From: Siphonobacter sp. BAB-5405
GTDB taxonomy: Bacteria; Bacteroidota; Bacteroidia; Cytophagales; Spirosomataceae
DNA length: 64,000 nucleotides
Direction of reading: 5' to 3'
Assembly: GCF_002872335.1 (NCBI RefSeq)
Contig: NZ_NJAG01000013.1
Location: forward strand, 1-64,000
A model generated the notes under the pieces. That model was not told the DNA's origin, searched no databases, and saw nothing but the letters and a program-made list of their open reading frames with translations. The first letter of the stretch is position 1, and each line of letters starts with the position of its first letter. Shown here in pieces: positions 13,375 through 23,844 of the stretch. The position numbers and the translations under genes are program-made.

Positions 13375-13833
13375 ATGATTTCAAAAAAAGCCAAATATGC
13401 TCTCAAAGCCCTGAAAGTGTTGGGTCAGGAGTTTGGGAACCAAAAACCAGTACTGATTTCCTACATTGCCGAGCAGGAGAAAATCCCCAAGAAATTTCTG
13501 GAAGCCATTTTGCTCGATTTGCGGAATCACGGCATTCTGCAAAGCCAGAAAGGAAAAGGTGGTGGTTATATGTTACGGATCCCACCGGCCGAAGTAAACT
13601 TTGCCAAAGTACTTCGAATTATCGACGGTCCGATTTCACCCACGCTTTGCGTTTCGCTGTATTTCTACGGAAAGTGCGACGACTGTGCCGATGAGCATAC
13701 CTGTACCTTACGGAATGTCATGCGGGACTGGCGGGATGCCAACCTTCACGTACTCGAGCAAACGACGATTGCCGACTTACTGGAGAACAAAGCGGCCGTG
13801 AATCTCGAAACACCCCAAACGAATATCGAGTAA
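13375..13833 (+). CDS. Rrf2-family transcriptional regulator
   Basis: A 152-residue winged-helix regulator starting MISKKAKYALKAL, with the Rrf2 pattern IPKKFLEAILLDLRNHGILQSQKGKGGGYML for the recognition helix and wing. Rrf2 proteins such as IscR and CymR sense Fe-S status, cysteine or nitric oxide. There are four cysteines in the sensing region, C92, C101, C104 and C110, a set compatible with Fe-S cluster binding but spaced differently from IscR (C92, C98, C104). No iron-sulfur or cysteine genes adjoin, so targets are elsewhere. A bidirectional terminator follows directly. Confidence 0.9.
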   Translation: MISKKAKYALKALKVLGQEFGNQKPVLISYIAEQEKIPKKFLEAILLDLRNHGILQSQKGKGGGYMLRIPPAEVNFAKVLRIIDGPISPTLCVSLYFYGKCDDCADEHTCTLRNVMRDWRDANLHVLEQTTIADLLENKAAVNLETPQTNIE

Positions 13834-13866
13834 TGAAAAAAGGCTGGTTGAACCAGCCTTTTTTCA
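13834..13866. terminator. Bidirectional terminator
   Basis: A long palindrome (13834-13849 with 13851-13866) with A and T tracts at its ends lies between the convergent Rrf2 and kinase genes and overlaps the Rrf2 stop region. Confidence 0.82.
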
Positions 13867-14712
13867 TTACTCGGGTTGATGGTAGAGCGTCAGTCCCGCA
13901 ATGGGTGTTTCCATAATCACACCGATGGTTACGCCTTTTTCCCGGGCTACTCTTCGAATAATATCGGAGTAATAAAACGCGACCGATCCGGTCAGATGCA
14001 CGCGGTAATTCGCGTAATCGGGGTATTTGAGAATGTATTTGTCGAAGAACAGTCGAAAGGCATCAGCGGCCAGTTGATAGGCAAAGGGATGCGTACGATT
14101 ATCGAATAGAAACTTGGAGAAACCCGCGAAATAGCGATTCGGAAAAGGTTTTTGATACGCATTTTCCAGTACCGTATCCCGATTGATTGTAGGGTACCGC
14201 TTCTCGAATTTGAGCTTCAGGTCTTCCGGTAATTCCCGGTGCAGATAGGCCTGTACCAGCGTTTTGCCCAGGTATCCCCCACTCCCTTCATCGCCCAGCC
14301 AGAAACCCAGCGTATCGACTTTATATTGAATATCACCGTTGGCGACCTGACAGGTATTCGAACCCGTTCCCAGGATACACGCAATCCCCGCCTCGCGTCC
14401 GCATAGGGCCCGGGCCGCTCCCAGCATATCGGAATGAGCTTCGATGTGCGTAGCCTCGGGAAACACCGCCGACAGCCCCGCCTGGATGATTGCCGCCTTT
14501 TCCGGCCCGCTCACGCCCGCTCCGTAAAAGAAAATTTCCGTGACGGGTTCCGTCACTTTTGGTTTCAGACTCAGCGACAGCTCTTTCGCAATCTCTTCCG
14601 AGGTCTGGTAAAAGGGATTGAATCCCACCGTACGGGCCTGCGACACGCTTCCATCGGCGGCCAGCATTCGCCAGTCGGTTTTCGTTGATCCACTATCTGC
14701 AATCAGTTGCAC
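13867..14712 (-). CDS. N-acetylglucosamine kinase-like (BadF/BadG ATPase family)
   Basis: A 281-residue sugar kinase of the actin-like ATPase fold. The phosphate 1 motif is at the N terminus (LIADSGSTKTDWR), the ILGTGSNTC segment follows near residue 115, and GDEGSGGYLGK is the typical signature of BadF/GlcNAc kinase-like proteins. It would phosphorylate an amino sugar, perhaps salvaged from peptidoglycan. It starts 36 bases after the VWA gene on the same strand, so it may be the last gene of that operon, although functionally it looks unrelated. The substrate is inferred from family only. Confidence 0.82.
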   Translation of the reverse strand: MQLIADSGSTKTDWRMLAADGSVSQARTVGFNPFYQTSEEIAKELSLSLKPKVTEPVTEIFFYGAGVSGPEKAAIIQAGLSAVFPEATHIEAHSDMLGAARALCGREAGIACILGTGSNTCQVANGDIQYKVDTLGFWLGDEGSGGYLGKTLVQAYLHRELPEDLKLKFEKRYPTINRDTVLENAYQKPFPNRYFAGFSKFLFDNRTHPFAYQLAADAFRLFFDKYILKYPDYANYRVHLTGSVAFYYSDIIRRVAREKGVTIGVIMETPIAGLTLYHQPE

Positions 14713-14748: not shown

Positions 14749-15927
14749 TTAGCCCTTCAGGGCAATTTCCCGATCACCCGCCCATTGTTTCAAATCCTGC
14801 TTGTTAATGGCCGCGGCCATGACTTCCGGGAACATATCGGGCGTACAGGCAAAAACGGGAATCCCCAGATCCCCTAAAAACTTGGCATTTCCGTGATCGT
14901 AATACGGGGCTCCCTCGTCATTCAAAGCCAGCAGACAAATCAGCTGAACGCCCGAAGCTACGATTTCCTGGACGCGTAGCCGCATCTGAGCCAGATTTCC
15001 ACCCTCGTATAAATCCGTAATCAGCACCAGAATCGTATCGTTGGGTTTCTGAATGACCTGCTGACAATAGCCCAGGGCCCGGTTGATGTCCGTACCGCCG
15101 CCGAGTTGTACGCCAAAGAGCAAATCAACGGGGTCGCGTAGGTCTTCCGTTAGATCGACCACTTCGGTATCAAACACGATCATCTGCGTTTTGATGGCCG
15201 GAATGGACGCCATAACCGAGCCAAAAATTCCGGAATAGACGACGGAACTGCCCATCGAACCCGACTGATCCAGGCATAGCACCACATCTTTCAGCGAACG
15301 CCGCGTTTTTCGCCCAAAGCCAATCAGTTCCTCGGGAATGATCGTCTGATACGTCGGCTGGTAATGCTTCAGGTTTTTGCGGATGGTACTCGGCCAGTCC
15401 ATTTCACTCAACCGCGGACGCCGATTGCGAACGCCCCGATTCAGGGCTCCGCTAATGGATTGAATGGTATTCTGAGCCAGTTTTTCCAGCAACTCATCCA
15501 CTACCTTTTGTACAACCCGCCGGGCCGTATCGCGGGTTTTCGAGGGAATCAGCTTACCCAATTCCATCAGCGTAGCTACCAGATGTACATCGGGCGTAGC
15601 TTGCTCCAGAATCTCCGGTTCAAAGAGTAGTTTCTTTTGTAATTCCGGCTTTTGCAGGGCGTCCTGCTGCATGACCTGCACCACCGACGCCGGAAAGTAC
15701 GTGCGAATATCGCCCAGCCAGCGGGCTACGTTCGGTTGTGAAGCTCCCGACCCACCCGCCCGTTCGGGACTATACTCAAATTTGCCGCGTATTTCAAAGT
15801 CGTACAGGGCCGACAGAGCCTTGTCAATCTGGGCTTCCGTAGGGTCGAGTGCCACGCCTGTACCGTCGGCCTGCTCTCCGCCTAGCAGCAATCGCCAGCG
15901 TTTGAGCGTTTCTTCGTGTATCGCCAT
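14749..15927 (-). CDS. VWA-domain protein (CoxE/CbbO-like), partner of a MoxR ATPase
   Basis: A 392-residue soluble protein. The N-terminal half is helical with no family I recognise. The VWA domain begins near residue 213 (KDVVLCLDQSGSMGSS), with an intact MIDAS of D220, S222 and S224, a GGTD at 277-280 for the Thr/Asp position, and LITDLYEGG later. Intact MIDAS VWA proteins bind partners through a divalent metal and are typical adaptors of MoxR-type AAA ATPases (NorD, CbbO and ViaA are examples). It is encoded 6 bases after the DUF5682-like gene and is the fifth gene of the SWIM-DUF5691-MoxR-DUF5682-VWA operon. Pairing with the ATPase at 18156-19235 is inferred. Confidence 0.88.
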   Translation of the reverse strand: MAIHEETLKRWRLLLGGEQADGTGVALDPTEAQIDKALSALYDFEIRGKFEYSPERAGGSGASQPNVARWLGDIRTYFPASVVQVMQQDALQKPELQKKLLFEPEILEQATPDVHLVATLMELGKLIPSKTRDTARRVVQKVVDELLEKLAQNTIQSISGALNRGVRNRRPRLSEMDWPSTIRKNLKHYQPTYQTIIPEELIGFGRKTRRSLKDVVLCLDQSGSMGSSVVYSGIFGSVMASIPAIKTQMIVFDTEVVDLTEDLRDPVDLLFGVQLGGGTDINRALGYCQQVIQKPNDTILVLITDLYEGGNLAQMRLRVQEIVASGVQLICLLALNDEGAPYYDHGNAKFLGDLGIPVFACTPDMFPEVMAAAINKQDLKQWAGDREIALKG

Positions 15928-15933
15928 GTGTGC

Positions 15934-18159
15934 TTAATTCAGTCCCAGTAATGCTTTCATCGGTGATAAACTGGCTTCCGCTCGTTCCCAGTTGAATTCG
16001 CCTTCTGCCCAACTCGTTTGCACGGCCGTTTCCAGCGTTACGGGCGGTTGTTTGGCTTTTTCACCCAGCTTGCGGCGTTCGGCTACTTCGAAGGTCGCAA
16101 AGGTCCGACGCAGGACGGGCAGTAACTCCATGAAGGTTTCCCCTGCCAGTTCGGCCACCCAGGTATACAGCAATTTCCAGAGAGCTGGATCGTACAGTAA
16201 AATGAGCCCACTACCGCTTAAGAAGCCTTCCAGCCAGGCCGCCGACTCGCTCGGTTCGTTGCCTTTCGACAAAGCTCGTTCAAACCGTTGCGTCATCAGT
16301 TCCTCTTCCAGTACTTTGCTGTCAAAGAGCAGTCGCGTACTCCCGCCGGTAATGAGAGCGGGCAAATGTTCTTTCGTTGCCAGAATCCATAAGGTATCCC
16401 GCCAGGCCTGCACCAGCGATTCGCGTTCGAGCAGACGGACGGATTCGTCCACCTGACGAATGAGTCCGAGCATCCGGCGGGCGTTTTCGTCGTCCAGTCC
16501 ATAGCAGGCGGTAGGTAAACCGATGCAGATTCGCGTCAGCAGCCCTTCCACGACCTGCATGAGTGTGGATAAGTCCGTTTTCCGAACGCTTCCGTAGCGA
16601 CTCACCGTGACCAGCGGTTGCAGGGCCATCATCAGTTCCTGCATATCCGCCGACACCGTCGCCAGTTCACTGATTTTATGAATCAGGCCGTCGAGTACGC
16701 CAAACAATTCTGCCGGAATGGCCGCTTCCAGTTTTTGAGCCAGTTCGGTAATGGAGGTACTCCGTTGGGTCTGGTCGAGCAGGTACTGCGTGGCCGCGTC
16801 TTCAATCCGGTTCCCCCAGATGGCTTTTTCAATGAGTTGAAGAATCGCCTCCGGACTCCACCGCAGTTGCCAGCCTTCCTTGAACGTTCCTTTGCCGGAA
16901 ATACCCGTCAAACTGCCCCAGGGTACATCCAACACCCGCAGGCGATGGAGAAAGATACTCCGGGAAAGATCGAGGTCTTTGCGAAGATCCAGCTCCAGAA
17001 ACTTGGTCTCTTCCCGAATTTCAAGGCGTAGCTTTTTGGCAATCGTTTCAAAATCGGTTTGAATGGGCAACTTCGGTAGTTCGTCGGGCACCTGTCCCAT
17101 GCGGTGAGCCACGATCAGCTCTTTCTCTACCAGTCGCATCAGAATGCCGTCGCCCATGCACATCACCGACTGCGTAGCCTCATTTAGCTCGTTCAAACCC
17201 GGACGCGGGAGGTTCCGCAAGGTCGCCAGCGAATCCGCCAGTCGGAAAGCTTCGATAATATGAGCCGTAGACACGTCCATCTTCTGCCGACGAAAGAGCC
17301 GGGCAACGCGGGTGAGCCATTGTTCGCCCCGGTCTTCGGGTTGATACCAGCGGTGCTCGTACCAGCCCGGCGAGTGAATCCCGGCCCCGTACCCACTCCA
17401 CCAGCTCATGCGGGTGTTCGTCCAGGGAATCCAGGTCAGGCGTACTTTAGCTTTGGGTAAGCCTTTGACGAGCGGCGTATCCTCCTTTTTGGTCGTTTTC
17501 AGATCGGTCAGAGCTGGCACGTGCCAGGCTCCGCAAACGACGGCGATGTTCGTAAAACCCTCTTTCTGAGCTTCGCGAATATGCTGCCGCATGAAAGCCT
17601 CCCGAATCGCATCCTGTTCCGGCGTCGGATGGGTCGAAGCGGCCCGAGCCGTTTCCATGGTTAGCTGTACCGCCTCGAAATACGCCGCCGAATCACCGAT
17701 GCGGGGGTCCTGTTCGAAGCGTTCCTCCCACCAGTCGTGATAGGTTTCATAGCCCGCCAGTTCAGCCAGCGTATGCAGCGGCGAAATTTCCCGTTCGGGA
17801 GACTCCTCTTTTTGAAGGGAGTCGATTTTGGGTGCTTCCTCCTTCGCCAGCGAATGCAATAAAGGCATGTCGGTCATGCGTACGGTCACCGCGTGCTGGT
17901 GAGCGTATTGCACGGCCACCCATTCGGGCGAGTACTCGACAAAGGGGTAAAATACGGCTTTCTGCGGTTCCTCGGCGTCGTAGGCGAGCACGGCTACGGG
18001 CGGCTGTAAATCTTTGTGAGCCGTCCAGTGCAGAATCTCCGTCAGCTCGGGTGGCCCTTCCACTAAAATCAGATCGGGCTGAATTTCCGTGAGTCGTTCC
18101 TGCACCCGCCGGGCCGAACCTACGCCGTGGTGGCGAATGCCCAACAAATGAATCGTCAT
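15934..18159 (-). CDS. DUF5682-like protein with TIKI/TraB-type motifs
   Basis: A large soluble protein of 741 residues matching the DUF5682 family as I remember it. The N-terminal 220 residues carry three motifs like those of the TIKI/TraB/EreA/ChaN superfamily: GIRH at 7-10, REAFM at 185-189 and GAWH at 209-212, plus VEGPPE at 33-38. In that superfamily these residues bind metal and catalyse hydrolysis. The rest is mostly helical without recognised domains. It overlaps the MoxR ATPase gene by 4 bases (ATGA), so the two are translationally coupled, and is 6 bases from the VWA gene. I infer a metal-dependent hydrolase loaded or controlled by the MoxR/VWA pair; no activity is established. Confidence 0.78.
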   Translation of the reverse strand: MTIHLLGIRHHGVGSARRVQERLTEIQPDLILVEGPPELTEILHWTAHKDLQPPVAVLAYDAEEPQKAVFYPFVEYSPEWVAVQYAHQHAVTVRMTDMPLLHSLAKEEAPKIDSLQKEESPEREISPLHTLAELAGYETYHDWWEERFEQDPRIGDSAAYFEAVQLTMETARAASTHPTPEQDAIREAFMRQHIREAQKEGFTNIAVVCGAWHVPALTDLKTTKKEDTPLVKGLPKAKVRLTWIPWTNTRMSWWSGYGAGIHSPGWYEHRWYQPEDRGEQWLTRVARLFRRQKMDVSTAHIIEAFRLADSLATLRNLPRPGLNELNEATQSVMCMGDGILMRLVEKELIVAHRMGQVPDELPKLPIQTDFETIAKKLRLEIREETKFLELDLRKDLDLSRSIFLHRLRVLDVPWGSLTGISGKGTFKEGWQLRWSPEAILQLIEKAIWGNRIEDAATQYLLDQTQRSTSITELAQKLEAAIPAELFGVLDGLIHKISELATVSADMQELMMALQPLVTVSRYGSVRKTDLSTLMQVVEGLLTRICIGLPTACYGLDDENARRMLGLIRQVDESVRLLERESLVQAWRDTLWILATKEHLPALITGGSTRLLFDSKVLEEELMTQRFERALSKGNEPSESAAWLEGFLSGSGLILLYDPALWKLLYTWVAELAGETFMELLPVLRRTFATFEVAERRKLGEKAKQPPVTLETAVQTSWAEGEFNWERAEASLSPMKALLGLN

Positions 18160-19235
18160 AGCGTCAGTTCCTTGCAGGCCCGGTACAGATCGCGGTAGTT
18201 TTCGCGGGTTTTCAGTACCGTTTCCAGGTATTCATTCCAGACTACTTTATCCTGAACCGGATCTTTCACCACGGCTCCGATCAGACCCGCGGCCAGATCT
18301 TCCGCCGTCACGCGGCCATCGCCAAAGTGAGCGGCCAGGGCCATTCCGTTGTTCATCACCGAAATGGCTTCGGCGGTACTCATCGTACCCGATGGCGTTT
18401 TCAGCTTGGCTTTGCCGTCCTGCGTAGCCCCCGAGCGTAATTCGCGGAAGATGGTCACCAGTCGCTGGATTTCAGTCAGGTGGGGAAGTTCCGCCGGTAG
18501 TTCCAAGGCTTTGGAAAGACTGCTTACGCGGCGTTGCACGATGCTGACTTCTTCGTCCATACTCTCGGGTACGGGCAGAATGACCGTATTGAAACGCCGC
18601 TTTAAGGCACTCGATAATTCGTTGACACCCTTATCGCGGTTGTTGGCCGTGGCAATTACGTTGAAGCCTTTGGTGGCCTGTACTTCCGAGTTCAGCTCGG
18701 GAATGGGCAGGGTTTTCTCCGAAAGAATGGTAATCAGCGTGTCCTGTACGTCGGCGGCAATCCGCGTTAATTCTTCGATCCGGGCAATTTTCCCGTCCTG
18801 CATGGCCCGCATCATGGGCGTTACGACGAGAGCATTCGGGGAAGGACCCTCGGCCAGCAGGCGGGCGTAATTCCAGCCGTAGCGAATCGCTTCTTCCCCC
18901 GTACCAGCGGTTCCCTGGATGAGCAGCGTAGAATTGCCCGATACCGCAGCCGCCAGGTGCTCGGCTACCCAGGATTTGGCCGTGCCCGGCAAACCGTACA
19001 GTAACAGAGCCCGGTCAGTAGTCAGGGTTGCGACGGCGATTTCCATCAGGCGGCGACTGCCAATGTATTTAGGACTTACTTCGAATCCATTTTTCAGCGT
19101 ACCGCCCATCAGGTACGTTACGACCGATTGCGGCGTCAGGACCCAGTTGGGGGGCCGCTGACCGCTATCCTGTTTCCGCAATTCTTCTAATTCTTCGGCA
19201 AATTGCTCTTCGGCGTGTTGGCGTAAAGCGTTCAT
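18156..19235 (-). CDS. MoxR-type AAA+ ATPase
   Basis: A 359-residue AAA+ protein. Walker A is GLPGTAKS at 81-88, the form seen in MoxR/ChlI-like ATPases. The Walker B position reads GKIARIEELTRI (149-160), with Glu where most AAA proteins have Asp. Sensor 1 is in VIATANN (193-199) and the arginine finger region is SALKRRF. MoxR ATPases act as chaperones that remodel or insert metals into partner enzymes together with VWA proteins. It overlaps the downstream DUF5682-like gene by 4 bases and follows the DUF5691-like gene by 29 bases. Its place at the centre of the operon makes it the motor of the putative system. Confidence 0.9.
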   Translation of the reverse strand: MNALRQHAEEQFAEELEELRKQDSGQRPPNWVLTPQSVVTYLMGGTLKNGFEVSPKYIGSRRLMEIAVATLTTDRALLLYGLPGTAKSWVAEHLAAAVSGNSTLLIQGTAGTGEEAIRYGWNYARLLAEGPSPNALVVTPMMRAMQDGKIARIEELTRIAADVQDTLITILSEKTLPIPELNSEVQATKGFNVIATANNRDKGVNELSSALKRRFNTVILPVPESMDEEVSIVQRRVSSLSKALELPAELPHLTEIQRLVTIFRELRSGATQDGKAKLKTPSGTMSTAEAISVMNNGMALAAHFGDGRVTAEDLAAGLIGAVVKDPVQDKVVWNEYLETVLKTRENYRDLYRACKELTL

Positions 19236-19264
19236 TTCTTCGTGAAAAGTAGGTTAGAAAACAG

Positions 19265-20770
19265 TTATAAGGCTTCGATGCGTTGACGAAGCTGAAGGAT
19301 TTCTTTCAACAGAATGATGAGTTTTTCTTCGCCCGACTGGTAATACGAAGGCGTATCCGAGGGCCGAAGGGCATCCATCTCCGCGTCGCTTAGCGGGTAC
19401 CAGTACGCACTGGCCTGGCGAACAAATTCCAGATACACGTGCGAGTTTCTGACCAGCTCGAACGATTCCCGCAAGATATGTTTGCTCAATTTCGCCGACC
19501 AGGGAGCGGTTAGTAATTCGGAGCGTTGCATACTCAGCTCCCGGAACGGAACGATGGTAAAGATCTTCTCCCATTCTTCCATCGTGAAGGAAGTAAGGCC
19601 GGGATACGGAATATGTGCTTTCGCCAGTATGGCAAAGAGTTCAGGTACGCGAAAACGAACGGACGCCTCCATCAGCGATACGTAGCGGGCGTACGAGCGG
19701 TCCGCTTTGGCTTTTTCTACGGTGAAAAAATTAACTACGCCGGGCCAGTCCGTTTTGAGTTCTTCTTTCCATACTCGCGGATCGACCAGTACCAGGGCTT
19801 CGGTAAACCAGTATTCGATCAGCGATTGGTACTGATAGGAATCCGTAGGTTGGGCCGCAAAGCCCCAGTGCTGGTGAAAGCGTTCCATCGAAAAGAATGC
19901 ATCTTCGGTTTCGGGCAGTACCAGTTTGGGATCGGCAGAAACCAGTCCCAGCAATTTCTTTTCGCGAACGACATACTTCCGCATTTCCTGCTGCACCAGC
20001 CGCCGTTCGGGCGAATCGGGTAAGGTGGCCAGCAGACGGATGAGCAGTTGACGGGTTTCCTGCTGAATGGGTTTATTGCCCTTCAATTCCTGCTGCACCT
20101 GCCGGAGAAAAGGCTCGTCGGCGGGAGATAAATCCAGAAAGAGTACGTCCAGAAAATCCTTGCGTTCGCGGGCATTGAGTTCGGGCCAGGCCTGTTCGAG
20201 TCGCTTGCGGGCGGCGGTGGGGTTTTGCTTTCGCAGGGTCGTTAGTACCTGCTTTCGTTCACTAGTCTTGCCTTCCTCCCAGCTCGCTTCCGAAGCTTTG
20301 GCTTTCCAGGGTTCGTAAAAATTCCGTAACCACTCGCCCCGTTTGCCTTGCACGGGAATCAGGGCTTCCTGTACGGAATCAAGTCCGATGTTCAGTAGTG
20401 ATACCAGCCAGGCGGGCGGTACAATCCAGTCCTTCTGAGCTAATTTTTGTAACAGTAAACCCAGTAAAACCGGATTCAGCGGCTGCTGATCCAGCAGGGT
20501 TTTAAGGATGCGAACGGCTTCCGTTGGGGCAACGGCTTTTTCTTCGGCTTCGGCAAGGGGTACGCCCGGAGATTCCAGTACGGGAGCCTGACGACCCGCC
20601 CGTTCGTACTGATGGGTAAGAGCGGCGGCCTGTAAGAAAAAACCTTCGCGGTCCTGCGGATTGGTCTGAGCCAGTGCCTGCTGAATGGATTCGGGCAAGG
20701 TTTCGAGGGAAAACCTGCCTTTCTCCGTTCCCAGCAATGCCACTTGTACGAGTTCATTCCAGGTATTCAT
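19265..20770 (-). CDS. DUF5691-like protein
   Basis: A 501-residue soluble protein that starts MNTWNELVQVALLGTEKGRF. From memory this fits the DUF5691 family, which is found beside SWIM, MoxR and DUF5682 genes in several phyla; the assignment rests mainly on this context. The sequence is helical, rich in Leu, Gln and Trp, and looks like alpha-helical repeats (for example QQVQQELKGNKPIQQET-type segments and LLATLPDSPERRL). No catalytic motif is visible, so it may be a scaffold. It starts 5 bases after the SWIM gene stop and is probably co-translated with it. Confidence 0.68.
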   Translation of the reverse strand: MNTWNELVQVALLGTEKGRFSLETLPESIQQALAQTNPQDREGFFLQAAALTHQYERAGRQAPVLESPGVPLAEAEEKAVAPTEAVRILKTLLDQQPLNPVLLGLLLQKLAQKDWIVPPAWLVSLLNIGLDSVQEALIPVQGKRGEWLRNFYEPWKAKASEASWEEGKTSERKQVLTTLRKQNPTAARKRLEQAWPELNARERKDFLDVLFLDLSPADEPFLRQVQQELKGNKPIQQETRQLLIRLLATLPDSPERRLVQQEMRKYVVREKKLLGLVSADPKLVLPETEDAFFSMERFHQHWGFAAQPTDSYQYQSLIEYWFTEALVLVDPRVWKEELKTDWPGVVNFFTVEKAKADRSYARYVSLMEASVRFRVPELFAILAKAHIPYPGLTSFTMEEWEKIFTIVPFRELSMQRSELLTAPWSAKLSKHILRESFELVRNSHVYLEFVRQASAYWYPLSDAEMDALRPSDTPSYYQSGEEKLIILLKEILQLRQRIEAL

Positions 20771-20775
20771 GCGGC

Positions 20776-22116
20776 TTAGGAAGGTAAGAGTTGATACTGA
20801 TCATCCAGCCAGATGCCGAGCGGATAGACCGTACCATCGCTGTAGCGTACTGATAAGGTCAGGGGGTTTCCGCCACCGAGAGCCAGCAGATGGAAAATTT
20901 TCATTTCGTAAAATTCTTCCGAGAGCGGTACAACCCGATTTTCGGTATCCCGTAGTAACCACTGATCGCCTACCCGTACCAGCGACACGGTCTGTATCCA
21001 CAACGGAATCTGGTCGGCCCAGGGTTGAGCCAGCCAGATTTGGTTCAGGAACGCTTCCGCTTTCAGCCAGTTAGCAAATGCTGGAGGCGGTGTATCTAAG
21101 TTGGAATAGCCGGAATGATTACCAACAATCGCCCGAAAAGGAAAAGCCGAGGGAAAGAAGCGTAACTCCGCCCGGGAACTCGTGCCCGGTACCAGGGGCG
21201 TTTCGATGCCTGCATTCTGATACGCGAAATTCAGTACCAGTGCGATACGATTCGTCTGATGACCCCAGAGCCAGTTTTGCTGCACGGTAATCCGCTCTTC
21301 TTCCCGCGTCAGGCGACCCAGTACCAGCCAGTCATCCGTAACGACTTCGCCTTCGGCATCCAGGTCTTTCGCCGAGCGGCTCCAGCCAAGGGCCGTTTTA
21401 ATATCTTCCTGTACGGGAATGGGCAACGAATCCAGATTTTTGAATGCCTCCGTCCAGACAAACAGCCTGGTACACTGTTCCAGCACCTGACTCTGCCAGT
21501 CGGAGCCCGCGTACGGGATAGTATTGAAAGCTTTCACGGCATTCGCCAGTCCGGTAGCCTGAGCATCGACCATGCGGGCGGCGGTCTGATCAAAATGCCG
21601 GTAGCCGCGTTCGGGTACGTTTAGCGTACCCGTTCGCACCATATCCCGCAGCCACTGGCCCAGTTCCGTAACGCCGCCCTGTACTTTTCGGAGGCGTTCC
21701 TGTTGCCGTTTTTGCCGATCCTTTTCTTTCTGCTCGTCCGTTGCGGGCGAGGCCACGACGGGTTCGGCGGCTTTTTCGGCTTTGGTCTGACGTTTATCCA
21801 TCCACTCACTCACCCAGGCGGGTTCTTCGGGCGGAGACTGAAAGGCGGGCGATGGTTTGGCAAAGAGTAACAACAGGCCCAGGCCGTGTTTGCAGGGAAA
21901 TTTCCGGCTGGGGCAACTGCATTTAGAGGCCATTTGCCCCAGGTCTATCTGGGTGCGGTAGGGATCCTTGCCGCTCCCCTGTACCTCGCCCCACAGGACG
22001 CGGTCGTTGAATGCCAGCGTCAGCCATTTATTCTCAACGGCTAAGGCTTTGCCTGCTTTGAGCGAAGCAGCATCGGGAGCTAATGAAACGACTTGTTCTT
22101 CCGTTATTGAATTCAC
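20776..22116 (-). CDS. SWIM zinc finger protein
   Basis: A 446-residue protein with a SWIM zinc finger near the N terminus: C66, C68, C75 and H77 in KCSCPSRKFPCKHG, the full CxCx(n)CxH pattern. SWIM fingers bind DNA or protein and also occur in SWI2/SNF2 ATPases and MuDR transposases, but no such domains are here. A charged, Lys/Glu/Gln-rich segment follows (about 110-145), then a C-terminal region of unknown fold rich in Trp and aromatic residues. It is the first gene of the five-gene operon, so its upstream region (22117-22600) should carry the promoter. It could recruit the system to nucleic acid or to a target protein. Confidence 0.85.
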   Translation of the reverse strand: MNSITEEQVVSLAPDAASLKAGKALAVENKWLTLAFNDRVLWGEVQGSGKDPYRTQIDLGQMASKCSCPSRKFPCKHGLGLLLLFAKPSPAFQSPPEEPAWVSEWMDKRQTKAEKAAEPVVASPATDEQKEKDRQKRQQERLRKVQGGVTELGQWLRDMVRTGTLNVPERGYRHFDQTAARMVDAQATGLANAVKAFNTIPYAGSDWQSQVLEQCTRLFVWTEAFKNLDSLPIPVQEDIKTALGWSRSAKDLDAEGEVVTDDWLVLGRLTREEERITVQQNWLWGHQTNRIALVLNFAYQNAGIETPLVPGTSSRAELRFFPSAFPFRAIVGNHSGYSNLDTPPPAFANWLKAEAFLNQIWLAQPWADQIPLWIQTVSLVRVGDQWLLRDTENRVVPLSEEFYEMKIFHLLALGGGNPLTLSVRYSDGTVYPLGIWLDDQYQLLPS

Positions 22117-22605: not shown

Positions 22606-23844
22606 ATGTACACGACGTTTGAATCCCCTACTCAGCGAGCAATTGCCCTCGAAGAGCGATACGGTGCTCACAATTACCATCCCCTCCCCGTAGTCCTGAG
22701 CCGAGGCCAGGGCGTATACGTCTGGGATGTGGAAAATAAACAGTATCTCGATTTTCTTTCCGCGTATTCAGCGGTGAATCAGGGACATTGCCACCCCGCG
22801 ATCATTGCTGCGTTGACCGAGCAGGCCCAGCGACTGACGCTTACCTCCCGTGCATTTTACTCCGATAAACTCGGCGAATGCGAGAAGTATCTGGCCGAAT
22901 ATTTCGGTTACGACAAGGCCCTGATGATGAATTCGGGCGTGGAAGGCGGAGAAACCGCTCTCAAGCTTACCCGAAAATGGGCGTATAAAGTCAAAGGAAT
23001 TGCCGCCGATCAGGCGAAAACGGTGTTCGCCGCCGGAAACTTCTGGGGTCGTACCCTGGCCGCCATCTCGGCCTCGACGGATCCCGACAGCCGGAACGAG
23101 TACGGACCTTTCCTGCCCGGTTATGTGATCATTCCCTACAATGATCTGGCCGCTCTGGAAGAAACCCTGGCCGCTGATCCCACCATTGCCGGATTCATGG
23201 TGGAACCCATTCAGGGTGAAGCGGGCGTGGTAGTACCTGACGAAGGGTATCTGCGGGGCGTTCGTGACCTCTGTACGAAATACAACGTTCTCTTCATTGC
23301 CGACGAAGTGCAGACGGGTCTGGGCCGTACGGGTAAACGACTGGCCTGCGATCACGAAGGCGTCCGTCCGGACATTCTTGTACTAGGCAAAGCTTTGTCG
23401 GGGGGCGTTTATCCCGTTTCCTGCGTACTGGCCGATGATGACATCATGCTGACCATTCGTCCCGGCGAACACGGTAGCACCTACGGCGGGAATCCGCTGG
23501 CCTGTGCCGTTACCATGGCTGCTCTGGATGTAATTCGGCAGGAAAAACTCGCCGAAAACGCCGAGCGGATGGGCGAACTGTTTCGCCGCCGTATGCGTGA
23601 ACTCAGCCAGAAAAGTGATCTGATTACACTGGTTCGGGGAAAAGGCTTACTCAATGCCATCGTTATTAATGACACTGAAACGAGTAATACCGCCTGGCAA
23701 GTGTGTCTGGATTTGAAGAATCGAGGTTTGCTGGCGAAACCCACGCACGGCAATAAAATCCGCTTTGCTCCACCCCTGGTGATTACCGAAGCTCAGATGG
23801 AGGAAGCCTGTGCTATGATTGAGCAGGCCGTGTTGTCTAAGTAA
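22606..23844 (+). CDS. rocD: Ornithine aminotransferase
   Basis: A 412-residue PLP enzyme of class III that transfers the delta-amino group of ornithine to 2-oxoglutarate, giving glutamate semialdehyde (arginine/ornithine catabolism or proline synthesis). The PLP lysine is K262 in [14 protein letters not shown]. Family motifs include [35 protein letters not shown] and [13 protein letters not shown], all close to known ornithine aminotransferases. Length is normal. It is monocistronic with a terminator-like hairpin at 23881-23922. Confidence 0.95.

What the first reader, a model, noticed from the sequence alone, without database searches (positions are those of the whole stretch)
14749..22116. 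Five-gene SWIM / DUF5691-like / MoxR / DUF5682-like / VWA operon, function undescribed
Five minus-strand genes are packed with gaps of 5 and 29 bases, a 4-base overlap, and a 6-base gap. They combine a zinc-finger recognition protein, a helical protein, an AAA ATPase, a large protein with TIKI/TraB-type motifs and an intact-MIDAS VWA protein. MoxR and VWA proteins usually activate or load metals into a client enzyme, so the DUF5682-like protein is the natural client. I recall the same set in other phyla but know no published function. It could be a stress, maturation or defence system.
Basis: partly seen in the sequence, partly recalled or inferred. Interest (0 to 1): 0.8.

Follow-up and report, generated by a model that had tools for sequence, protein, structure and literature searches.

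The report
Five-gene ATPase–hydrolase machine, function unknown
A cluster of five genes in a Siphonobacter bacterium encodes what looks like an energy-driven protein machine built around an enzyme-like protein; related clusters, one of them in ordinary E. coli, occur in many bacteria, and we found no report of what they do.

Summary
In detail: five minus-strand genes, SWIM–DUF5691–MoxR–DUF5682–VWA. They are one system. In surveys of 910 genomes of five phyla, DUF5691 tracks DUF5682 where tested (Bacteroidota 8 of 8, Actinomycetota 16 of 17). Of 66 fetched survey loci, 29 keep the exact order and 7 more hold all five divergently. Fusions mark two modules: DUF5682–VWA (7 loci) and SWIM–DUF5691 (2 loci). 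A DUF5682 tree splits by architecture. E. coli yehL-M-P-Q is a sister type with WGR/DUF4132 genes instead of DUF5691. DUF5682 models as a TIKI/TraB-like domain plus a HEAT-like arm. Best explanation: a MoxR–VWA motor drives a resident TIKI-fold hydrolase aimed by a SWIM module. Shown: one system, module pairing, intact motor motifs. Inferred: hydrolysis, targeting, role. Metal loading stays a live rival (CoxE-like VWA; molR beside yehI). Defence is not favoured: no strong PADLOC match, no consistent defence neighbourhood, near-core in E. coli (5162 of 5426). No paper with the name DUF5682 or DUF5691 is in the library searched.

The parts
20776..22116 (-). Gene 1, SWIM zinc-finger protein (446 aa, GTG start); the finger C66-x-C68-x6-C75-x-H77 lies at 21921-21886
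   Evidence: Pfam SWIM 1.3e-6; each Cys kept in 48 of 49 rows and the His in 48 of 48 (window counted twice)
19265..20770 (-). Gene 2, DUF5691 protein (501 aa)
   Evidence: Pfam PF18944 2.3e-56 over residues 6-498; in one polypeptide with the SWIM protein in Hymenobacter plasmid locus L176 and in one open frame in L140
18156..19235 (-). Gene 3, MoxR-type AAA+ ATPase (359 aa); Walker A at 18995-18972
   Evidence: Pfam AAA_5 1.6e-35; K87 in 70 of 71, E154/E155, N198, R213/R214 in 72 of 72 rows (window counted twice)
15934..18159 (-). Gene 4, DUF5682 protein (741 aa): N-terminal TIKI/TraB-like domain (about 18159-17482) and C-terminal HEAT/ARM-like arm (about 16953-15937)
   Evidence: Pfam PF18934 2.1e-244; AlphaFold2 model pLDDT 82.7, pTM 0.74; VIA-align matches; H10 78/78, E34 78/78, R186 79/79, H213 79/79 (window counted twice)
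14749..15927 (-). Gene 5, CoxE-like VWA protein (392 aa); MIDAS DxSxS at 15270-15256
   Evidence: Pfam VWA_CoxE 1.5e-47; D220, S222, S224, D305 in 71 of 71 and T279 in 69 of 71 rows (window counted twice); joined to DUF5682 in 7 loci
13867..14712 (-). BadF/BcrA-type kinase gene, possibly on the same transcript in Siphonobacter; not a conserved member of the system
   Evidence: 36-base gap; its neighbour cluster holds the 4 Siphonobacter loci only; Pfam BcrAD_BadFG E 1.3e-4, 22 bits, below its cut-off of 31.5
13827..13873 (-). Terminator-like hairpin after the BadF gene
   Evidence: 20-pair stem with T-rich tail; a consensus match only

Best explanation
The five genes encode one ATP-driven machine with two modules. 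Module 1 is MoxR + VWA + DUF5682: a MoxR ring is coupled through the CoxE-like VWA protein to DUF5682, which carries a TIKI/TraB-fold hydrolase-like domain on a HEAT-like arm. Module 2 is SWIM + DUF5691, a recognition and docking unit; in sister systems DUF4132/WGR proteins stand in place of DUF5691. ATP hydrolysis by MoxR moves the VWA protein, as in NorQ-NorD, and so opens, loads or feeds the DUF5682 active site on a target chosen by the SWIM module. The role is more likely house-keeping or stress-related than anti-phage. Shown: the set is one system, the pairing of modules, intact ATPase and MIDAS motifs, conserved polar residues in order. Inferred: ring form, hydrolysis, motion, targeting, physiological role.
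Against: No activity is known to us for any DUF5682 protein. Foldseek gave no match at E <= 0.001; the complex IV chains came at E 0.034-0.21. Profile comparison with TraB and Ere families gave only short weak matches (E 0.056 and 0.18); the same method also failed on TraB against Ere (E 0.76), so it is insensitive. The first Glu of the TIKI 2His/2Glu set has no clear counterpart (position R9). The N-domain was not folded alone. No SWIM motif near DUF5682 in 4 of 4 type D loci, 5 of 5 lone loci and L153. DUF5682 stands without the other four within about 9.5 kb in L006, L010, L019, L052, L150, L151, the first three cut by contig ends. That chain DQ is the TraB-family subunit was not confirmed.
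Confidence: 0.42

Rival explanations
1. Metal or cofactor loading: MoxR and the CoxE-like VWA insert a metal into DUF5682 or, with DUF5682 as adaptor, into an unlinked metalloenzyme, perhaps molybdenum-related.
For: VWA matches the CoxE family; CoxD is required for the CO dehydrogenase metal cluster (PMC3893208 passage) and NorQ-NorD for metal insertion (PMC13036017 abstract). In E. coli, molR is listed directly before yehI (PMC10652928 table passage) and placed at 47.3 min (PMC4245954 table passage); the cited 1990 title calls molR essential for molybdate use (reference-list entry only; the paper is not held). DUF5682 has many invariant His/Glu/Asp residues.
Against: The molR link concerns the sister type. 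No YehI- or YehF-like match appears in the type A loci (with narrow profiles built from E. coli sequences). DUF4132 occurs in 8 of 21 DUF5682 genomes, and in the two where both contig numbers are known (G000, G402) it lies on another contig. In Deinococcus, moeA and moeB did not change when WGR and DUF4132 genes rose (PMC8533742 passage). Whether metalloenzymes recur nearby was not tested by family search; the two widest neighbour clusters (16 and 9 loci) look by eye like sensor kinases and ABC transporters.
Confidence: 0.25
2. DUF5682 is a pseudo-enzyme: the TIKI-like domain only binds, and the set is a scaffold that remodels some nucleic-acid or protein complex under stress, for example after DNA damage.
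For: HEAT-like arm; SWIM finger here and a WGR domain in the sister cluster; a DUF4132 protein and a WGR protein rise strongly on depletion of the DNA-damage repressor DdrO in Deinococcus radiodurans (PMC8533742 passage).
Against: H10, E34, R186 and H213 are invariant in the 78-79 rows scored, which is unusual for a dead enzyme. The Deinococcus genes are not DUF5682 genes, and that paper's text holds no mention of MoxR, SWIM or von Willebrand.
Confidence: 0.2
3. Anti-phage or conflict system related to the MoxR-vWA ternary systems.
For: MoxR plus VWA plus a third subunit recalls the ternary systems of PMC7159879 (passages). Tsukamurella L012 carries PDC-S02, BrxL and PglZ genes next to the operon, and a Hymenobacter plasmid a PDC-S02 gene beside VWA. 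Neighbour genes match 38 PADLOC families against 18 for controls. Patchy spread; DUF5682 in 36 of 72,556 plasmid records, several of them chromosome-sized.
Against: Only weak PADLOC hits of the five proteins. Of the 25 neighbour families shown, 16 come from two adjacent Tsukamurella genes, so no consistent neighbourhood is seen. E. coli yehL-Q covers >=80% in 5162 of 5426 genomes, against 5375 for metG. The same genes lie on the VWA side in four Siphonobacter. 0 of 116 pattern matches confirmed in viral contigs.
Confidence: 0.1

Closest known systems
E. coli K-12 yehF/yehH/yehI-yehL-yehM-yehP-yehQ cluster (YehL subfamily of MoxR)
   Same: MoxR, DUF5682 (YehM), CoxE-like VWA (YehP) and SWIM protein (YehQ) side by side
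   Different: No DUF5691 (E. coli is negative in the control panel); WGR and DUF4132 genes instead; SWIM gene last, with two SWIM-type motifs; separate clade in the DUF5682 tree; YehM 23-25% identical to the window protein
NorQ-NorD and CoxD-CoxE (MoxR-VWA metal-insertion pairs)
   Same: MoxR ATPase with a VWA partner holding an intact MIDAS; CoxE-type VWA by Pfam
   Different: A TIKI-like/HEAT-like third subunit and a SWIM module; no dedicated metalloenzyme gene in the window operon
MoxR-vWA ternary conflict systems (VMAP, iSTAND, beta-propeller)
   Same: MoxR plus VWA plus a third large subunit
   Different: Third subunit is DUF5682; bpMoxR model below its cut-off (23.2 against 27 bits); SWIM, TIKI, TraB and YehL do not occur in the text of PMC7159879
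TIKI/TraB/EreA/ChaN superfamily
   Same: N-domain fold by model; ordered His, Glu, Arg, His
   Different: Long HEAT-like arm; sequence similarity not shown by profiles; motor partners

Membership tests
MoxR AAA+ ATPases | Walker A, Walker B, sensor 1 and arginine residues | tested here: met
   K87 in 70 of 71, E154/E155, N198, R213/R214 in 72 of 72; AAA_5 1.6e-35. Walker B reads E-E; that the motif is usually D-E is recalled.
YehL subfamily of MoxR | Gene neighbourhood and closest sequence kinship to YehL | tested here: inconclusive
   Neighbourhood shared with E. coli yehL; no MoxR tree with the other subfamilies was built
CoxE-like VWA proteins | VWA_CoxE profile and complete MIDAS | tested here: met
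   PF05762 1.5e-47; MIDAS residues kept
TIKI superfamily | Parallel beta-sheet core of the TIKI fold | tested here: inconclusive
TIKI superfamily | 2His/2Glu catalytic set | tested here: inconclusive
   H10, E34 and H213 invariant and in order, H11 75 of 78; second Glu not assigned; side chains not superposed
TIKI superfamily | Hydrolase or protease activity | not testable with these tools
   needs an assay
MoxR-vWA ternary conflict systems (PMC7159879) | VMAP, iSTAND or beta-propeller third component | tested here: not met
   Pfam finds DUF5682, DUF5691 and SWIM as the further parts; bpMoxR below cut-off
Known anti-phage systems | Strong match to a PADLOC model | tested here: not met
   Best hits IetA 6e-5 (P-loop) and DpdE 3.1e-4 (SWIM region); none for DUF5691, DUF5682 or VWA up to E 1

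The most novel reading that the evidence does not exclude
The set is the founding type of an undescribed class of machines: a TIKI-fold hydrolase permanently yoked to a MoxR-VWA motor and aimed by an exchangeable module (SWIM-DUF5691, or SWIM plus WGR/DUF4132). MoxR-DUF5682-VWA clusters occur in eight bacterial phyla in our data, and the class includes the near-core yeh locus of E. coli.
Probability: 0.35. Interest if true: 0.85.

Novelty: new variant of a known kind. Interest (0 to 1): 0.6.

Why it matters
If right, an AAA+ motor of the metal-insertion type drives a TIKI-fold hydrolase, a pairing that none of our ten literature searches turned up. It would also give a function to a cluster that most E. 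coli carry, where laboratory deletions are easy, and to two large domains of unknown function. The fusions and the architecture tree tell an experimenter which proteins to co-purify and which are exchangeable.

Tried and rejected
Recent foreign origin by base composition: operon genes have G+C 0.535-0.565 against about 0.46-0.51 for most other window genes, but BadF (0.530) and the aminotransferase gene at 22606-23844 (0.547) are also high, and an offset of 0.042-0.048 is seen in three other Siphonobacter. Not used as evidence.

RNA-repair link: a PADLOC 'RtcR' hit among neighbours. I first guessed L153, wrongly. Of the neighbours with the sigma-54 motif, only a response regulator in L047 fits. 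Rejected.

DUF5691 as a remote DUF4132 or a copy of the DUF5682 arm: no similarity by hhalign (E 0.086; 0.34 and 0.41). A 590-aa protein in the DUF5691 place of L155 gave a weak match to DUF5691 (E 0.0064, probability 5.9%). SWIM protein against YehQ: only the finger region aligns.

Phage carriage: 0 confirmed of 116 pattern matches in viral contigs; 1 of 50,697 phage records, an 'UNVERIFIED' clone (L244) with MoxR, DUF5682 and VWA, more likely bacterial DNA. Solved homologue by sequence: no meaningful match, best E 1.9. Foldseek listed complex IV chains at E 0.034, 0.098 and 0.21, and HopBA1 not among its first 50.

Defence neighbours: PADLOC at E <= 1e-10 gave 38 families in 103 neighbours of 27 loci (25 shown, so proteins cannot be counted exactly) and 18 in 101 control genes of 20 genomes. 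Fifteen of these 20 genomes are among the 27 loci. ORFs were called by my own codon-score script, not a gene finder.

Literature: ten searches. Only asked for DUF5682 and DUF5691: 0 papers. Of, 30 of 650 papers were seen, as listings; most hold a surname. Most subscription journals are not held.

Rows dropped: the tree left out L010, L014, L016, L019, L152, L171 (fragments) and anything of 600 aa or less (78 rows kept). The order tally lacks G809 (Planctomycetota, in pieces) and G861 (Chloroflexota), which were not fetched. The five centre genomes, chosen because they have DUF5682, are included in the survey counts. In one search I grouped L153 with the basal loci; the tree puts it in the type A clade, so it is reported apart.

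Mended after the one check: the basal count (5 of 5, L153 apart), the contig claim for DUF4132, the metalloenzyme claim, the extent of the DGF-298 deletion, the Foldseek statement and the list of broken copies.

Full report
What is there. The five genes lie exactly as described, and Pfam names each part. The genome is taken to be a Siphonobacter: the window lies at G000:C8, its DUF5682 is 73-74% identical to those of three loci titled Siphonobacter, and these share the genes on the VWA side. Five of the six genomes of the genus listed carry DUF5682, but only 19 of 200 of the family, in 6 of 36 genera. A BadF-type kinase gene follows 36 bases after VWA; its neighbour cluster holds only this genus.

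Is it one system? DUF5682 occurs over the family cut-off in 8 of 395 Bacteroidota, 17 of 198 Actinomycetota, 7 of 117 Cyanobacteriota, 9 of 99 Planctomycetota and 18 of 101 Chloroflexota genomes; each count includes a centre genome known to have it. DUF5691 was surveyed in the first two groups. All 8 Bacteroidota with DUF5682 have it (7 over cut-off), and one other genome has a sub-threshold match. Sixteen of 17 Actinomycetota have it, and three other genomes have sub-threshold matches. Of 66 fetched survey loci, 29 have the exact order SWIM-DUF5691-MoxR-DUF5682-VWA and 7 more have all five as two divergent arms. MoxR is next to DUF5682 in 61, and VWA is in the same-strand cluster in 59 (the last two counts are read off its table). 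Several others are cut by contig ends. Against: in some genomes DUF5682 stands apart (L052, L150, L151), and in G037 and G178 DUF5691 lies on another contig than DUF5682.

Two modules. Fusions join DUF5682 with VWA in seven loci (L137, L138, L139, L141, L142, L154; L180) and SWIM with DUF5691 in two (L176; L140). The divergent actinomycete arrangement cuts between the same modules. The seven DUF5682-VWA fusions form one clade, so they count as one or few events.

Types. The DUF5682 tree (78 rows, quick method, midpoint root) groups by architecture. Type A: five genes, this window. Type B: DUF4132/WGR-MoxR-DUF5682-VWA-SWIM, with E. coli yeh, L143, L144, L158, L159 (not every part is seen in each; L143 and L158 are near contig ends). 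Type C: DUF5682-VWA fused, with a DUF4132 gene and a 1640-1683-aa protein upstream in the two loci read (L180, L137). Type D: VWA-MoxR-DUF5682 (L145, L146, L174, L175). A basal set in Planctomycetota and Chloroflexota (L155, L156, L157, L172, L173) has a SWIM gene but no recognised DUF5691. A SWIM motif sits near DUF5682 in 5 of 5 B, 7 of 7 C and 5 of 5 basal loci, in 0 of 4 D loci, 0 of 5 lone loci and not in L153, and in none of the control ORFs. So SWIM, MoxR, DUF5682 and VWA form the usual core, and the fifth gene is exchangeable. Among plasmid records (36 of 72,556, several chromosome-sized) all five genes occur in Deinococcus and Rhizobium, and a Methylosinus copy has a broken VWA.

Motor. 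MoxR and VWA motifs are kept across the family. In NorQ-NorD a VWA finger enters the ATPase pore and ATP use remodels a VWA linker (PMC13036017, abstract), while the MIDAS is thought to bind the target (PMC9976466, passages). The same logic here would let VWA hold DUF5682 or its target; this is inference.

Role. Defence is not favoured: only weak PADLOC hits, and no consistent defence neighbourhood. PADLOC matches 38 families among neighbours against 18 among controls, but 16 of the 25 shown come from two adjacent Tsukamurella genes; Tsukamurella and one Hymenobacter plasmid do have real defence neighbours. The E. coli sister is near-core (5162 of 5426 genomes with at least 80% covered; metG 5375). 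The sister cluster has an old tie to molybdate: molR precedes yehI in a deletion table (PMC10652928, passage) and maps at 47.3 min, where a molR1 deletion slows growth together with a lepA deletion (PMC4245954, passages). That molR is yehF is recalled. The genome-reduced strain DGF-298 lacks yehI to yehQ and part of molR, so these are dispensable. A Deinococcus DUF4132 protein and a WGR protein rise on depletion of DdrO, without change in moeA or moeB (PMC8533742, passage). These hints point to stress or metal work, not to one answer.

Known or new. The kind, a MoxR-VWA pair with partners, is known; E. coli holds a named sister annotated as uncharacterised or putative. The five-gene type with DUF5691, the fusions, the exchange of the fifth gene and the TIKI-like reading of DUF5682 were not met in our ten searches, in a library without most subscription journals. 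A mention of SWIM proteins in such operons in older domain papers is possible (recalled, not checked).

Noticed in passing
window 13867-14712: BadF/BcrA-type kinase-like gene directly downstream of VWA on the same strand, also in three other Siphonobacter loci, before a long terminator-like hairpin
   Followed up: partly
L012 13390-19087: In Tsukamurella the five-gene operon is next to PDC-S02, BrxL and PglZ genes, apparently a BREX locus; clusters of similar neighbours in L013 and L016
   Followed up: partly
L174 4419-6232, with relatives in L175 and L146: Type D systems have, upstream of VWA, a 159-aa protein with a Cys/His cluster that by eye resembles a variant SWIM finger, and a 446-aa protein; neither matches Pfam up to E 0.1
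   Followed up: partly
L001 3475-10912: E. coli WGR (yehF) and DUF4132 (yehI) genes with a yehH pseudogene in K-12 precede yehL-Q; a molR1 deletion is reported to slow growth together with a lepA deletion (PMC4245954 passage)
   Followed up: no
L179 14160-15385: Methylosinus plasmid pOB3b3 copy: the VWA gene is broken into several frames, with transposase genes nearby
   Followed up: no
L244: An 'UNVERIFIED' phage clone from human faeces carries MoxR, DUF5682 and VWA, probably bacterial DNA
   Followed up: partly
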